37,859 nt of DNA, taken from the IMG/VR virus record IMGVR_UViG_3300026484_000284, positions 64,001 through 101,859 of that record. One strand, 5' to 3'. The notes below the pieces were generated by a model, which was not told where the DNA came from, did not search any database, and worked only from the letters and a program-made list of their open reading frames with translations. Made by a program: the position numbers and the translations under genes. Below, one piece after another: positions 23,803-30,998 of the stretch (positions are counted from its first letter, which is position 1; each line of letters starts with the position of its first letter). This stretch comes from a virus.

Positions 23803-25059
23803 TTATTCAAAATCTCCAAAATCAAAATCCCCACTCGATTCTTCAAACTTCAAATCACCTGCTGAGTCTTCAGGTACCCCAAAACTCGCATTTAATTGAC
23901 TTGTCAAATCCGGTAAATTATTGTTATCTACCTCATTAACTTTTTGATTCATTTGTTTAATTCCTGCTTGCTCATCAACGATACCTTTAAAGGCCATCCT
24001 TGAAAAATCAACTTCTAATAAAACCTTTTCAAGTTTCCCCGTGTATCTATTTTTGTCTGCTTTTAATATAATTTGCTTTTGCTGTCTCAATTCTTCATTC
24101 GATAACATACTTGCGGCAAAATCTGCTGTAGCAATAACACCGATTGACTCTGAAATGTTCTCCATTCCTGCTTCCGTATTGTTATAAGAACTTCTATTCA
24201 TTTGCGAACTTGAAATTATTATAATATCGTTTTGTTTTGCAAACCCGTGCAATTCTTCTGCTATACTTTTAAAATATGTATAAGAACCTTGACTTAATTT
24301 TGCTCTCGTTGATTTCATTAGGTTAAGATAATCAACCACGATATAATCCAACTTGATATTATGCTCATTTTCAATCTCATCTTTTAGGAATTGTAAATCA
24401 AATACACTAAAACCTCCAGCAGGATATTCCTTTACAAAAAATTTACCTGTGTAATCTTTAACTTTATCATATTTTGCCTTATACACTTCCCAACTCATAT
24501 TGTCGAATTCGTGTAGTTGAGTGTAAAGTAGATTAGCATCAAATCTTTTTAGTATTTCTGCTTCTTCCATTTCAAGTGAAACATATAAACCATTTTTCTT
24601 CTGTAAAGACATACCTGCAGCAGTTGCTATTTTTAGTGCCGTGTTATGATGTAAAATTCCATTAGCATCATAATATAAATGTGGTGCATCTAATGATAAA
24701 CCATATAAAAACTCATCTGTATTTTCTTTTATATTTAAGTGTTTAATTTTAACTAATCCTTCAACTGTTTCTAAATAATCTCCAACTTTTAAATCTTTAG
24801 CATAAATAATGTTTCCATTTATTACGAACCTGTGATTTAATGAAACCACAACTTCAATTCCGTTTTCAAGTGTAACTTCAACCCAATCCTCAGGTGTTTT
24901 TTTAACTAATTGTCTAATAGGCACAATACCATCTGGAGATTCAATATAACACTCATATTTTAAATCTGAAAATATATCACACTCATAACTCTCTTCTAAA
25001 AATTCATTGAATTCAAATAATTCACTTATTTCCATTGTTATTTTTTTTAAATCACTCAT
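23803..25059 (-). CDS. 41: gp41 replicative helicase, C-terminal half with split C-intein, 418 aa
   Basis: Residues 1-139 are a C-intein: the block B-like sequence SLNHRFVI (73-80), block F AKDLKVGDYL (87-96) and block G ANGILHHN (132-139, ending in His-Asn). From Thr140 onward it is a DnaB-type helicase: TALKIATAAG completes the Walker A loop, YVSLEMEEAEIL is motif 1a, YIVVDYLNLM is Walker B, and IIISSSQMNRSSY is motif 3. Extein length is 279 residues. With the N-half's 204 residues it makes 483, close to T4 gp41 (475). The helicase unwinds DNA at the fork. The C-terminus is acidic. The gene has its own AAAGGAG site and a weak promoter candidate upstream. Confidence 0.9.
   Translation of the reverse strand: MSDLKKITMEISELFEFNEFLEESYECDIFSDLKYECYIESPDGIVPIRQLVKKTPEDWVEVTLENGIEVVVSLNHRFVINGNIIYAKDLKVGDYLETVEGLVKIKHLNIKENTDEFLYGLSLDAPHLYYDANGILHHNTALKIATAAGMSLQKKNGLYVSLEMEEAEILKRFDANLLYTQLHEFDNMSWEVYKAKYDKVKDYTGKFFVKEYPAGGFSVFDLQFLKDEIENEHNIKLDYIVVDYLNLMKSTRAKLSQGSYTYFKSIAEELHGFAKQNDIIIISSSQMNRSSYNNTEAGMENISESIGVIATADFAASMLSNEELRQQKQIILKADKNRYTGKLEKVLLEVDFSRMAFKGIVDEQAGIKQMNQKVNEVDNNNLPDLTSQLNASFGVPEDSAGDLKFEESSGDFDFGDFE
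24643..25059 (-). other. C-intein of gp41 (long C-part, 139 residues)
   Basis: The segment contains the intein blocks B, F and G and the terminal HHN, followed by Thr as the +1 residue. Block B normally lies on the N-part; its presence here means the split is near the intein's N-end, as in the AceL/VidaL-type inteins. Confidence 0.85.
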
Positions 25060-25082
25060 TATTTTCTCCTTTAAGTGTCCCT

Positions 25083-25111
25083 ATTATATTAAAATACTTT
25101 ATAAATTTAAT
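25083..25111 (-). promoter_or_regulatory. Weak promoter candidate for gp41-C
   Basis: TATAAT (25083-25088) with a 17-base spacer and a poor ATTAAA -35 box (25106-25111) lies 24 bases before the gp41-C ATG. It would explain expression past the terminator upstream. Confidence 0.35.
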
Positions 25112-25175
25112 GTTATGTTTTTCAATAGTTTTTTTGAATTTATAATTTTTTATTATAAACATCTTTATCCATTAA

Positions 25176-25206
25176 AAAAGAAATAGATTTCAGGTCTATT
25201 TCTTTT
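25176..25206 (-). terminator. Hairpin terminator between the two gp41 halves
   Basis: A perfect 12-base stem (25176-25187 with 25195-25206) and 7-base loop lies 20 bases after the gp41-N stop. On the minus strand it ends in a run of six T (overlapping the stem base). It resembles a rho-independent terminator, although the stem is AU-rich. It could act in both directions. Confidence 0.7.
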
Positions 25207-25225
25207 ATGTATGTTATGCTTTTTT

Positions 25226-25933
25226 TTAAGAATTCAATTTTTTATTTCTTTTCCACTCTTCGAACTTTTTTCGTGTTTTTTCATCTACATATATATTCAA
25301 TTTTGTATCTTTTCTTAAACATTTACCTCCGTGCGATGGCGCCAAAAATAAATTTAATGTTTTACTTCTGAAACCACCACCTAATAAATCGTCAAGAACA
25401 TTTATTCCAGTTGAAATTTTTCTAAATTCTTCTTGATATTTTTTAAATCTATTTTCCAAGTCATTATGGAACTCTAAACCTAAATCCGTATCAAAATTAT
25501 AATTTAGTGCCTTTTCAAATTTTACGATTATATCATTTTCAATATCGTCTTTTTGTTTTAATTCATCGACACTTTCCAAGATAGCATCCATCAATGAAAT
25601 CTTTTTTAAGTGCCTTTGAGTGAATTGTATTAAAAAGTCAAAATTTTTTATATCTTGCTCATTTTTTAATTCTGTTTTAATGTAATTAAAAACATTCTGT
25701 TTTAAATTTTTGTCTAATCCACTTTCCATAACAAAAAGCGCCAATTCTTTAATTGACGGAGATTTCTCAAATTTTTTATGAAATTTTTCAATATATTGAT
25801 ATATCGTCTTAGTTTCAACTTTTTTAAAATTATTGCCTTCTAATTTTGAAAATACTCTGGCAAAATAAGCAGGATTCTTCATAAGGTGAAAAATTATAAT
25901 TTTTTCTCCATCGAGATTGTCTAATTCATTCAT
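25226..25933 (-). CDS. 41: gp41 replicative helicase, N-terminal half with split N-intein, 235 aa
   Basis: Residues 1-204 are the N-terminal and linker domain of a DnaB/gp41-like helicase, reading ISTGINVLDDLLGGG (about 170-184) and then LFLAPSHGGK, the first part of the Walker A loop. The loop stops at Gly-Lys and residue 205 is Cys, the first residue of a 31-residue N-intein (CLRKDTKLNIYV start). The intein's block A lies here and block B is in the other gene. The remaining Walker A Thr is found at the start of the C-extein. The gene has a GTTAAT-class promoter (25993-26021). Confidence 0.88.
   Translation of the reverse strand: MNELDNLDGEKIIIFHLMKNPAYFARVFSKLEGNNFKKVETKTIYQYIEKFHKKFEKSPSIKELALFVMESGLDKNLKQNVFNYIKTELKNEQDIKNFDFLIQFTQRHLKKISLMDAILESVDELKQKDDIENDIIVKFEKALNYNFDTDLGLEFHNDLENRFKKYQEEFRKISTGINVLDDLLGGGFRSKTLNLFLAPSHGGKCLRKDTKLNIYVDEKTRKKFEEWKRNKKLNS
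25229..25321 (-). other. N-intein of gp41 (31 residues)
   Basis: From Cys205 to the stop of gp41-N there are 31 residues, starting CLRKDT, resembling the short N-parts (about 25 residues) known for atypically split inteins. It is inserted between Lys and Thr of the Walker A loop. Confidence 0.85.
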
Positions 25934-28316: not shown

Positions 28317-29468
28317 TCAATATACCGACATCAATTTTAATAAAAATGCCATTAAAGTAATTTCTTTGTTTTTAGCAATTTTATCCATTTCTTGATACCT
28401 TGCCAATTCCCCAACTATCCCAGGTTGTTTTTGTGCTGGTAAAAATTCGTCCATTTTTTTCCAAAACCAAGTGTAAAAATTTGAAGGGTTATTGAGTAAC
28501 ATAACCATTCCTCTTGTCGTACTATAATTTTTTTCTTTAACTTTTTCCATTAAGTCGGTAAAAATATCATCTACATCCAAATTTTGGAGTTTTAGTTTTC
28601 CATTGACTACATTATCTTGTAATGAAATTGTCATATTTCTCATAGAAGGATAGTGCTTTTTAACTATTTCACCTATATCCTTTTTATCGTACTCAACACC
28701 TTCAATTTCGCAAATATCTATAAGTCTTTTATACATTTTTTTGGCAATTTCGTTTTTATGTTCTTGAAAAATAATATCAAAATCAAAAACAATAAATCTA
28801 CTCAATAAAGGTTCTATGAATCTATCTTTATAGTTTCCTGTTAGAAAAAATCTAACATTACCAGCATATTGCTCAATCACTCCCCTTAAAATATCTTGTG
28901 CTCCTGCACTTCCTTGACTTGAAGTCGTTAGGTTATCTGCTTCGTCTAAAACCAATAGTTTTCTTTTACCTTGTGCTGACATAGTACTTGCAAAACTCAC
29001 GATTTCATTTCTAATGGTCGAAACCGAATTATCCTGAGAAGCATTTATCCATTTTACATCTGAATCTAACTCGTGAATTAAAGCATTTAACATACTTCCC
29101 TTACCTGTATTATGAGATGAAACTTCATTTAGGAAGTATTGGTGCTTTTCACTATCAACAGTTAAGTCATAAACCGGTTTCACTTCATTTGTTTCTTCAA
29201 TAAATAAAACCTCAATAATTCCTTTTTCACTTAAAATTTCTTGACCTATTTTTAAATCTTTTGAATAAACCCATCCGTTTTCAATTTCAAAAAGATGATT
29301 TTCGGCGACCTCCATAAAGTCAAGTTCTTCATTATATTCATAATATACTATAATAGTTTTCTCTTTTTTTGTTACGGATGCTATAACATTTTCAAATCCT
29401 GTATCTGTTTTAATTTTTAAAGTTGAATTATTGAAATAATAATCCAAATTTTTTACATCAATTAACAT
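28317..29468 (-). CDS. 44: gp44 clamp-loader ATPase, C-terminal half with split C-intein, 383 aa
   Basis: Residues 1-120 are a C-intein with block B (AENHLFEI, 55-62), block F (SKDLKIGQEIL, about 69-79) and block G ending SSHN (117-120). Thr121 starts the C-extein TGKGSMLNALI, completing the Walker A loop, followed by LLVLDEADNL (Walker B), FLTGNYKDR and SRF (sensor/arginine region) typical of AAA+ clamp loaders. The C-extein is 263 residues; with the 56-residue N-extein it gives 319, equal to T4 gp44. gp44 opens and loads the gp45 clamp. It has its own AAGGAGAT site, and its ATG overlaps the end of the endonuclease gene. Confidence 0.9.
   Translation of the reverse strand: MLIDVKNLDYYFNNSTLKIKTDTGFENVIASVTKKEKTIIVYYEYNEELDFMEVAENHLFEIENGWVYSKDLKIGQEILSEKGIIEVLFIEETNEVKPVYDLTVDSEKHQYFLNEVSSHNTGKGSMLNALIHELDSDVKWINASQDNSVSTIRNEIVSFASTMSAQGKRKLLVLDEADNLTTSSQGSAGAQDILRGVIEQYAGNVRFFLTGNYKDRFIEPLLSRFIVFDFDIIFQEHKNEIAKKMYKRLIDICEIEGVEYDKKDIGEIVKKHYPSMRNMTISLQDNVVNGKLKLQNLDVDDIFTDLMEKVKEKNYSTTRGMVMLLNNPSNFYTWFWKKMDEFLPAQKQPGIVGELARYQEMDKIAKNKEITLMAFLLKLMSVY
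29109..29468 (-). other. C-intein of gp44 (120 residues)
   Basis: It begins at the gene start and ends in Ser-Ser-His-Asn, then Thr. Like the gp41 C-intein it includes block B, so the split lies close to the N-end of the intein. Residues 91-120 (PVYDLTVDSEKHQYFLNEV region) form the C-terminal blocks. Confidence 0.85.
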
Positions 29469-30187
29469 TTTATCTCCTTAATAAATTTTTCAAATTCTTG
29501 TGGTAACAAAATAATGGCACCAAATTTGAATTCTTTGTAAATCATTTTAGCATCATATTCATAATTACCTTTCAAACCAGCAATTTCTATATACATATTT
29601 TTTGAAGGAATATAAAAATCACATCGCATTCTTGAATTAGTATAATGTTTTTCCAATTCAAATTTTATATCATTTTCTTTCAATAAATCATAAAAATTTA
29701 TTTCATAACTACTTCTCAATAAACCTTCACTGACTTTTTTTGTATATCCATATCTTGATTTATGATTTTCAATGGGATTATATAAAACCCCAATCTTATT
29801 TTCAATATCACTTTTAAAAAATTTTATGGGCTTAATAAATTCTTTAGGCACCACGAAATTACAATAATTTTTATATTTTTCAACATAAAAATCAATATAA
29901 CTATTTTTTGAAGAATATTTTTTGAGAATTATATCATTTAATTGTTTGTTTTTTGAAATTGATTCTTTCGTATATTTTTTTAAATAACATTCACAATATT
30001 CTTCAAAATCCTTCGAATAAGTCCAATCCATTTTTATTCTATCAAAGTATTTTTGAATCGTGCTTCTGTTTTGTAATGATTCTTTCCATTTGTTTTGTCT
30101 TGACTTCCAAATCTGAAACGCCACACCAATAGGATATTTTTTAATTAGTTTTTCAAGTGAAAAGGTTGTTTGTCTTTCTTTCAACAT
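29462..30187 (-). CDS. Vsr/DUF559-like homing endonuclease between the gp44 halves, 241+ aa
   Basis: The C-terminal part has SSYEINFYDLLKENDIKF, SRMRCDFYIPSKNMYIEIAG, an order typical of PD-(D/E)XK Vsr/DUF559-type nucleases: Glu in a first helix, Arg-x-Asp strand and a Glu-x-Ala strand. Free-standing nucleases like this lie between split-intein halves in the described fractured genes, where they promote spread by DNA cutting. The frame continues open upstream of the ATG to about 30278; the ATG has no ribosome binding site and falls inside a repeated helical module, so the protein may be made as a frameshifted extension of gp44-N. The last codons overlap the ATG of gp44-C. Confidence 0.8.
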   Translation of the reverse strand: MLKERQTTFSLEKLIKKYPIGVAFQIWKSRQNKWKESLQNRSTIQKYFDRIKMDWTYSKDFEEYCECYLKKYTKESISKNKQLNDIILKKYSSKNSYIDFYVEKYKNYCNFVVPKEFIKPIKFFKSDIENKIGVLYNPIENHKSRYGYTKKVSEGLLRSSYEINFYDLLKENDIKFELEKHYTNSRMRCDFYIPSKNMYIEIAGLKGNYEYDAKMIYKEFKFGAIILLPQEFEKFIKEIKC

Positions 30188-30263
30188 TTTTTTAGCAGTT
30201 CCCTCATCATATCCTTTTTCTAAATAGTATTCAATTCTTGTCGTAAAAGTTTTTTTATATTTT

Positions 30264-30269
30264 TCAGGG
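30264..30269 (-). other. CCC-TGA possible +1 frameshift site
   Basis: gp44-N ends with CCC TGA at 30264-30269. Shifting +1 (skipping the T) gives CCC-GAA-AAA and continues without a stop through the endonuclease to 29462, producing a 511-residue fusion. The continuing peptide KYKKTFTTRIEYYLEKGYDE fits the repeated helical module of the tail before it. CCC-TGA is a known shift-prone type of site; here it could also be a simple one-base mutation. Confidence 0.55.
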
Positions 30270-30998
30270 GTGTTCCTTTACTAACTTTGATTTGATTTTC
30301 CCGTTTTTTGATTGTATCATAAATACTTGTTTTTGTGCTTCTTCAATACTAAATCCTCTATTAACCCAAAATGAAACGGTTGAAGGTTGCTGCTTTTCAA
30401 AAAAATCCATCTCTTTATTGTCAATAATCGCTTTTCTAAGTTTTAATAAAGTAACTTTTCCGTCTATATTTTGTTTAAAATTCAAATCTTTAAAATCATT
30501 CTCAAAGTATTTTTTTCTTCTTCTAATTCTTTTAGTTGTCTCGACTGCTTCTTCAAAAGTTTTAAAATTTAACCAATAAATGAATTTAGGATATTTACTT
30601 TTGAATTTCTTATCTTCTTTAATTAAATTTATTATACGACTTTTATTTTTATCCCAATTTTCTGAAATTTTTTTATATGCTATTTCATTTACTTCAAAAG
30701 TATCTTTTGAAACTTCATAGGTTAAGTTTTCAAATAATGTTTTTGATTTTAACAACGGGAATTTCTTCAATAATTCTTTTTTATGTAAAGAATCAACTCT
30801 AACTTCCACATTATTACCTTCAACACTACACCCTGGAGTGCTACTTACAAACATAATATTCGGAATATTACTTTTATCTATATACTCTTGAAATTTTTCC
30901 ATAAGATAATCTGGTAAAACCACATCCTTTAATCTTTGGGGGCGATATTTCTCAACCCATAAGTCGTTAAACTTTTCATTATACACTAAATCTGGCAT
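30264..30998 (-). CDS. 44: gp44 clamp-loader ATPase, N-terminal half with split N-intein and module tail, 244 aa
   Basis: Residues 1-56 are the gp44 N-end: LWVEKYRPQRLKDVVLP is the start typical of clamp loaders and FVSSTPG is the first part of Walker A. Cys57 begins an N-intein (CSVEGNNVEVRVDSL start) of about 30 residues. The rest (to 244) is not intein-like: it contains helical repeats such as YPKFIYWLNFKTFEEAV and STVSFWVNRGFSIEEAQKQV, which continue in the +1 frame in the next ORF. The tail is basic and may bind DNA. The promoter at 31051-31079 starts the transcript, with AAAGGAGAACAA before the ATG. Confidence 0.88.
   Translation of the reverse strand: MPDLVYNEKFNDLWVEKYRPQRLKDVVLPDYLMEKFQEYIDKSNIPNIMFVSSTPGCSVEGNNVEVRVDSLHKKELLKKFPLLKSKTLFENLTYEVSKDTFEVNEIAYKKISENWDKNKSRIINLIKEDKKFKSKYPKFIYWLNFKTFEEAVETTKRIRRRKKYFENDFKDLNFKQNIDGKVTLLKLRKAIIDNKEMDFFEKQQPSTVSFWVNRGFSIEEAQKQVFMIQSKNGKIKSKLVKEHP
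30741..30830 (-). other. N-intein of gp44 (about 30 residues)
   Basis: It starts at Cys57 and its right end is not defined by sequence; the span of 30 residues is set by analogy with gp41. It splits the loop between Gly and Thr of Gly-Thr-Gly-Lys. Confidence 0.7.

What the first reader, a model, noticed from the sequence alone, without database searches (positions are those of the whole stretch)
28317..30998. Fractured gp44 clamp-loader gene: split intein plus endonuclease inside one locus
Seen: gp44 is encoded in two ORFs joined by an intein start (Cys57 after FVSSTPG) and an intein end (SSHN before TGKGSMLN), with a Vsr-like endonuclease between. In-silico joining gives 56 + 263 = 319 residues, the length of T4 gp44, and restores the Walker A loop GTGKGS. 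Known: this arrangement was described from metagenomic data as fractured genes (Dassa et al. 2009). Inference: gp44 is made only after trans-splicing. The N-part is short and block B lies on the C-part, so the intein is of the AceL/VidaL-type atypical split.
Basis: partly seen in the sequence, partly recalled or inferred. Interest (0 to 1): 0.9.

Follow-up and report, generated by a model that had tools for sequence, protein, structure and literature searches.

The report
Split intein inside phage clamp-loader gene
A phage's clamp-loader gene has been cut in two by a selfish element carrying two intein halves, which should glue the protein back together, and a DNA-cutting enzyme; the kind is known, but this host gene, a clean 'before' copy in a sister phage and a second cut helicase gene in the same phage are new.

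Summary
The fracture is real. gp44 (T4-type clamp loader) is encoded as an N part (56 residues, SSTPG|) and a C part (263 residues, |TGKGS), separated by exactly 1722 nt. A sister phage (L002) lacks those 1722 nt and has an intact 319-residue gp44. The C part begins with a 120-residue intein C-half carrying the expected catalytic residues; its modelled fold matches VidaL best. The middle encodes an I-Bth0305I/Vsr-like homing endonuclease. This is a 'fractured gene' with an atypical split intein: a new member of a known kind. 67 related loci follow the same plan in terminase, gp46, Clp, PhoH and other genes; one more (L025) is gp44 cut at another point.

None of 43 relatives shows this. It is a broken endonuclease, a sequence error, or RF2-like programmed frameshifting. 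(2) The N-half fails the N-half profile; it rests on position and Cys1. (3) The Walker A motif is non-canonical (GKG), also in the sister. A second, endonuclease-free split intein cuts the gp41 helicase. Trans-splicing itself is inferred.

The parts
30831..30998 (-). gp44 N-extein, 56 codons, ends ...FVSSTPG
   Evidence: PHROG_168 profile 8-53; same residues in the intact sister gp44
29109..30830 (-). whole inserted element, 1722 nt
   Evidence: absent from L002, flanks collinear
30741..30830 (-). putative intein N-half from Cys57 (CSVEGNNVEVRV...); its end is uncertain (12 to about 30 residues)
   Evidence: position at the empty-site junction and Cys1; fails N-half profile and scoring matrix
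30264..30740 (-). first part of the homing endonuclease, in frame with the intein N-half
   Evidence: endonuclease profile E 3e-8, read-through aligns as one piece; coding signal in frame 0
30264..30278 (-). frame break: AAG GAA CAC CCC TGA, +1 shift into the next ORF; SD-like AAGGA four bases before CCC_TGA
   Evidence: direct reading; junction fits relatives; rarity estimate
29462..30277 (-). second part of the homing endonuclease, Vsr/I-Bth0305I-like nuclease domain at its C-terminus
   Evidence: relatives; fold match 3r3p; Glu192, Asp220, Glu231, Lys248 invariant in eight sequences
29474..29479 (-). Shine-Dalgarno AAGGAG, 5 bases before the ATG of the C ORF; that ATG overlaps the endonuclease end by 7 bases
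   Evidence: direct reading; similar small overlaps or gaps in most relatives
29109..29468 (-). intein C-half, 120 residues, ends SSHN
   Evidence: PT-HINT 2.1e-6, VidaL by sequence and fold, invariant His58, His119, Asn120 in 45 sequences
28317..29108 (-). gp44 C-extein, 263 codons, begins TGKGSML
   Evidence: PHROG_168 50-308; 99% identical to sister
25226..25933 (-). second fractured gene: gp41-type helicase N part (204 codons) plus 31-residue intein N-half CLRKDTKLNIYV...
   Evidence: N-half score 19.8; intact in sister
23803..25059 (-). gp41-type helicase C part behind a 139-residue intein C-half ending GILHHN; 166-base gap to the N part without an endonuclease
   Evidence: intact in sister

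Best explanation
A mobile split-intein element of the 'fractured gene' kind has inserted between the Gly and Thr codons of the gp44 P-loop. Two polypeptides are made: gp44 residues 1-56 with the intein N-half (here followed by an endonuclease tail), and the 120-residue intein C-half followed by gp44 residues 57-319, started from its own Shine-Dalgarno. The halves bind, form one HINT fold and trans-splice, releasing full-length 319-residue gp44. The endonuclease between them is, or was, the mobility enzyme that cuts intein-less gp44 so that the element is copied in. Shown here: insertion, exact empty site, exteins, intein C-half, nuclease family, frame break. Inferred: splicing, DNA cutting, homing. 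The endonuclease is most likely inactivated, or the contig has a one-base error; programmed +1 frameshifting is the main alternative for that detail.
For: Empty site in a collinear sister phage and exact 1722-nt insert. Clamp-loader profile continues across the junction. C-half: PT-HINT, VidaL as only PDB sequence match and best fold match, E 9.5e-7, TM 0.77, catalytic His, His-Asn and +1 Thr kept. Endonuclease: homologous to those of 67 other loci with the same order of parts, fold match to I-Bth0305I. C ORF has its own SD and start. Both extein halves strongly constrained, dN/dS 0.035 and 0.009. gp41 in the same genome carries a second, complete split intein, also absent from the sister.
Against: The N-half does not match the N-half profile; score -4.0 against 13-28 for others, reached by 4% of random Cys-led 12-mers. 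No splicing data. dN/dS includes time before insertion. The frame break shows that at least part of the element may be damaged.
Confidence: 0.85

Rival explanations
1. Same element, but the endonuclease is made on purpose by RF2-like +1 programmed frameshifting at AAGGA-ACAC-CCC_TGA: most ribosomes stop and give the gp44 N part, a few give a gp44N-IntN-endonuclease fusion.
For: SD-like AAGGA four bases before CCC_TGA; frames overlap only in that stretch. About 430 codons of endonuclease kept open on both sides with good coding signal. The +1 product fits relatives at the junction. Random one-base duplications in 58 related genes give this motif 1 time in 60,576; any homopolymer slip codon with an SD-like in 0.6%. 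No other good start for the second part was seen.
Against: Single copy, so no conservation test. No downstream stimulatory structure (z 0.49). Two related endonucleases (L022, L057) have plain frame breaks. One extra base in a C run gives the same picture.
Confidence: 0.22
2. The split gene is a dead relic: the intein can no longer splice (degenerate N-half, broken endonuclease) and gp44 function is lost or supplied elsewhere.
For: Poor N-half match; broken endonuclease; non-canonical Walker A.
Against: All C-half catalytic residues and Cys1 kept; strong constraint on both exteins; intact SD and start of the C part; Walker A change is shared by the uncut sister, so it is not decay after insertion.
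Confidence: 0.08
3. The insert is a self-splicing intron with an endonuclease gene rather than an intein.
For: An endonuclease inside a phage gene with a clean empty site.
Against: No Rfam match up to E 1; the 120 residues before the C-extein are an intein fold with their own start codon.
Confidence: 0.02

Closest known systems
Fractured genes with split inteins and a free-standing endonuclease (Dassa et al. 2009, PMC2677866; not held here, known from citations and memory)
   Same: Host gene in two ORFs, each with an intein half; endonuclease gene between; phage replication genes as hosts.
   Different: Host gene gp44 is not one I recall from that paper (not checked); N-half runs on into the endonuclease and the endonuclease is frame-broken.
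VidaL / AceL-TerL / Cat atypical split inteins
   Same: Short N-half, C-half over 100 residues holding block B; VidaL 6vgv is the best match by sequence and fold; Cat 6dsl also matched. AceL-TerL has 25 + 104 residues (PMC11766414).
   Different: N-half very divergent; host is the clamp loader; +1 residue Thr (Cys in AceL-TerL).
L025 fractured gp44 (IMGVR_UViG_3300035698_006294)
   Same: gp44 host gene, same order of parts.
   Different: Inserted after GVGK (|TT), not after PG; N-half stops normally, endonuclease is a separate intact ORF.
I-Bth0305I homing endonuclease (Vsr-like)
   Same: Best PDB fold match of the nuclease domain, 3r3p, prob 1.00.
   Different: Foldseek E only 5e-3 and TMt 0.53; sequence far apart; sits in an intein locus here.

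Membership tests
Fractured gene (split-intein locus) | Two separate ORFs encode the two parts of one conserved protein | tested here: met
   PHROG_168 8-53 and 50-308; intact allele in L002
Fractured gene (split-intein locus) | Each part carries an intein half at the junction | tested here: inconclusive
   C-half met; N-half only Cys1 and position
Fractured gene (split-intein locus) | Homing endonuclease ORF between the parts | tested here: met
   but spread over two frames
Fractured gene (split-intein locus) | Separate stop of the N part before an independent endonuclease ORF (seen in all 43 relatives with a recognised N-half) | tested here: not met
   A feature of the relatives surveyed here, not of the published definition as I know it
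Fractured gene (split-intein locus) | Protein trans-splicing restores the host protein | not testable with these tools
   in-silico joining equals the sister's 319-residue gp44
Atypical split intein (VidaL/AceL type) | Split before block B; C-half over 100 residues with blocks B, F, G | tested here: met
Class 1 intein | Cys/Ser1, block-B His, penultimate His, terminal Asn, Cys/Ser/Thr+1 | tested here: met
   Cys57; His58, His119, Asn120 of the C-half; Thr+1
I-Bth0305I / Vsr-like homing endonuclease | Nuclease fold with conserved acidic and Lys residues | tested here: met
   3r3p prob 1.00, E 5e-3; Glu192, Asp220, Glu231, Lys248 invariant
I-Bth0305I / Vsr-like homing endonuclease | Cuts the intein-less allele | not testable with these tools
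   empty allele exists (L002); no cleavage data
Programmed +1 frameshift (RF2 type) | Slippery codon before a stop, SD-like element a few bases upstream | tested here: met
   AAGGA-ACAC-CCC_TGA
Programmed +1 frameshift (RF2 type) | Site conserved among relatives, or +1 product measured | not testable with these tools
   single copy of this insert found

The most novel reading that the evidence does not exclude
A split intein whose N-half is continued into its homing endonuclease, with the endonuclease dosed by +1 programmed ribosomal frameshifting, so that the host-protein fragment and the mobility enzyme come from one start codon at a set ratio.
Probability: 0.22. Interest if true: 0.75.

Novelty: new member of a known kind. 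Interest (0 to 1): 0.5.

Why it matters
It adds the clamp loader, and in the same genome the replicative helicase, to the genes carrying atypical split inteins, each with an exact empty site in a close relative, which makes splicing and homing directly testable. Two unlike split inteins in one replisome (C-halves 23% identical) ought to be an orthogonal pair, useful for protein engineering. The 67 loci gathered here (48 distinct exteins) show that many of these elements sit in P-loop codons of ATPase genes.

Tried and rejected
Intron: no Rfam match. N-half by HMM and scoring matrix: failed. Close relatives of the N-ORF tail or of the C-half alone in viral contigs: none. Copies of the N-ORF tail or endonuclease in the sister G001: none. 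Further gp44 inteins among 80 viral gp44 loci: none (the ranking favours intact genes). A gradient of identity beside the insertion site as a sign of recent homing: none. The idea that the endonuclease came from Clp-gene elements inserted at the same P-loop point (PG|[TC]GK) was dropped as a firm claim, because its nearest relative (L175) sits in a terminase gene.

Full report
What is there. On the minus strand the window encodes a T4-type replication module. gp44 lies in two ORFs, 30998-30264 and 29468-28317, with a third ORF between them. PHROG_168 (clamp loader) is matched by the first ORF at profile positions 8-53 and by the second at 50-308. The record is an IMG/VR virus contig of 101,859 bases.

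The empty site. A search with the C ORF found one near relative, L002 (IMGVR_UViG_3300026521_000463), collinear at 81-88% nucleotide identity, in which gp44 is a single 319-residue ORF reading ...FVSSTPG|TGKGSML.... The window differs by an insert of exactly 1722 nt, 29109-30830, between the Gly and Thr codons. Extein identity is 89% and 91% with no gradient near the site. dN/dS is 0.035 and 0.009 for the two halves, so the protein is strongly constrained, although this includes time before the insertion.

The intein. The first 120 residues of the C ORF match Pfam PT-HINT at 2e-6, and VidaL (6vgv) at 1.7e-6 as the only PDB chain. Aligned with 44 other C-halves, the invariant columns are the block-B His and the terminal His-Asn. 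The model (pLDDT 85.7) has VidaL as its best PDB match, E 9.5e-7, TM 0.77, and all leading matches are inteins or intein-like domains. The next residue is Thr, allowed for class 1. The N-half must begin at Cys57, because the empty site shows where the extein ends. By sequence it is poor: Pfam and NCBIfam do not find it, it scores -4.0 on a matrix where 15 other N-halves score 13-28, and 4% of random Cys-led 12-mers do as well. Cys1 and hydrophobic residues at 8 and 10 are kept. This is the weakest link.

The endonuclease. The frame open from 30277 to 29462 is about 27-36% identical to its nearest relatives, the endonucleases of other fractured genes. Its model is confident only in the N-terminal repeats and the C-terminal domain; the best PDB match is the I-Bth0305I catalytic domain (3r3p, prob 1.00, E 5e-3), which supports 'Vsr-like'. 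Glu192, Asp220, Glu231 and Lys248 are invariant in eight sequences.

The N ORF does not stop after a short N-half. It runs on into the first part of the endonuclease (profile E 3e-8), which continues in the +1 frame; the read-through protein aligns as one piece, and the junction residues fit relatives (LKKDNP-EHY in L022, LVKEHP-EKY here). A codon-usage scan puts the switch at about 30275 with good coding signal on both sides. The two frames overlap only in AGGAACACCCCTGA. In 43 relatives with a recognised N-half, the N-half always ends at its own stop after 24-62 residues and the endonuclease is a separate ORF. So either one base was gained (mutation or sequence error) or the phage uses +1 frameshifting. 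The site has an SD-like AAGGA four bases before CCC_TGA, the plan of the bacterial RF2 gene; CCC_TGA also serves +1 frameshifting in Listeria phage PSA (both from memory). Random one-base duplications in 58 related genes give this motif 1 time in 60,576, and any homopolymer slip codon with an SD-like in 0.6%. Against it, there is no downstream structure, and two related endonucleases have plain breaks. I put programmed frameshifting at about one in five.

Expression of the C part. AAGGAG stands 5 bases before its ATG, which overlaps the endonuclease end by 7 bases. Most relatives show a similar small overlap or gap. So the C part is made as its own protein.

How common it is. A scan with an alignment of four endonucleases gave 80 viral loci. 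In 67 loci (one of them, L004, from the phage collection) the endonuclease is followed by an intein C-half ending in His-Asn; these have 48 distinct exteins, among them terminase, gp46/SbcC, Clp-like protease, PhoH and a UvsW-like helicase. UvsX of phage PA5oct (L007) and PhoH of a 462-kb phage (L004) show the plan too. L025 has gp44 cut at GVGK|TT. A set of 80 gp44 loci showed no other gp44 intein.

Second fractured gene in the window. The gp41-type helicase is cut at ...LAPSHGGK|TALKIA...: N part 25933-25226 with a 31-residue N-half that scores 19.8, C part 25059-23803 with a 139-residue C-half, and a gap of 166 bases with no endonuclease. The sister's gp41 is intact (484 aa). The sister instead has a cut terminase-like gene with no match in G000. 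So related phages carry split inteins in different P-loop genes.

Verdict. Trans-splicing is the best explanation (0.85) but is not shown. The more novel open point is the run-on, frame-shifted endonuclease. In the held literature no paper links split inteins with gp44; the founding paper could not be read, so a mention of gp44 there cannot be excluded.

Noticed in passing
window 23803-25933 (-): Second fractured gene: gp41-type helicase split by an atypical split intein without endonuclease; intact in the sister phage.
   Followed up: yes
L093:819-3905 (sister record G001): Terminase-like gene cut at a P-loop (GATGVGK|TKIS) with a 27-residue N-half, a 211-aa ORF of unknown kind between, and a C-half ending EIHHN; no match to its C part in G000.
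   Followed up: partly
window 29108-29085; L002:5013-5036: gp44 Walker A reads GTGKGS in both phages, with Gly where 48 of 48 other gp44-type loci have Thr or Ser after the Lys.
   Followed up: no
L025:4394-6807: Another fractured gp44, cut at GVGK|TT, with separate intact endonuclease: independent invasion of the same gene.
   Followed up: partly
L193:4067-4744: Intein C-half in front of a clamp-loader-like stretch (CNSTQPSLRNFMEEFALNCRFILTANY), a third insertion point in this protein family.
   Followed up: no
L007:1218-4224 (Pseudomonas phage PA5oct): UvsX-like recombinase fractured at GESG|SGKS with a 17-residue N-half and an endonuclease-like ORF between; annotated as hypothetical proteins and UvsX.
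   Followed up: partly
L004:1883-5145 (uncultured phage LR756500): PhoH-like gene fractured at GKAG|TGKT, the same point of the P-loop as in the window's gp44.
   Followed up: partly
L022:4709-5927; L057:4589-5546: Two other fractured-gene endonucleases with +1 frame breaks, one in a run of seven G, one in an A run.
   Followed up: partly
L005:3015-5733 (Caulobacter phage Cr30): The same endonuclease kind stands free just before a terminase gene in which no intein was seen.
   Followed up: no
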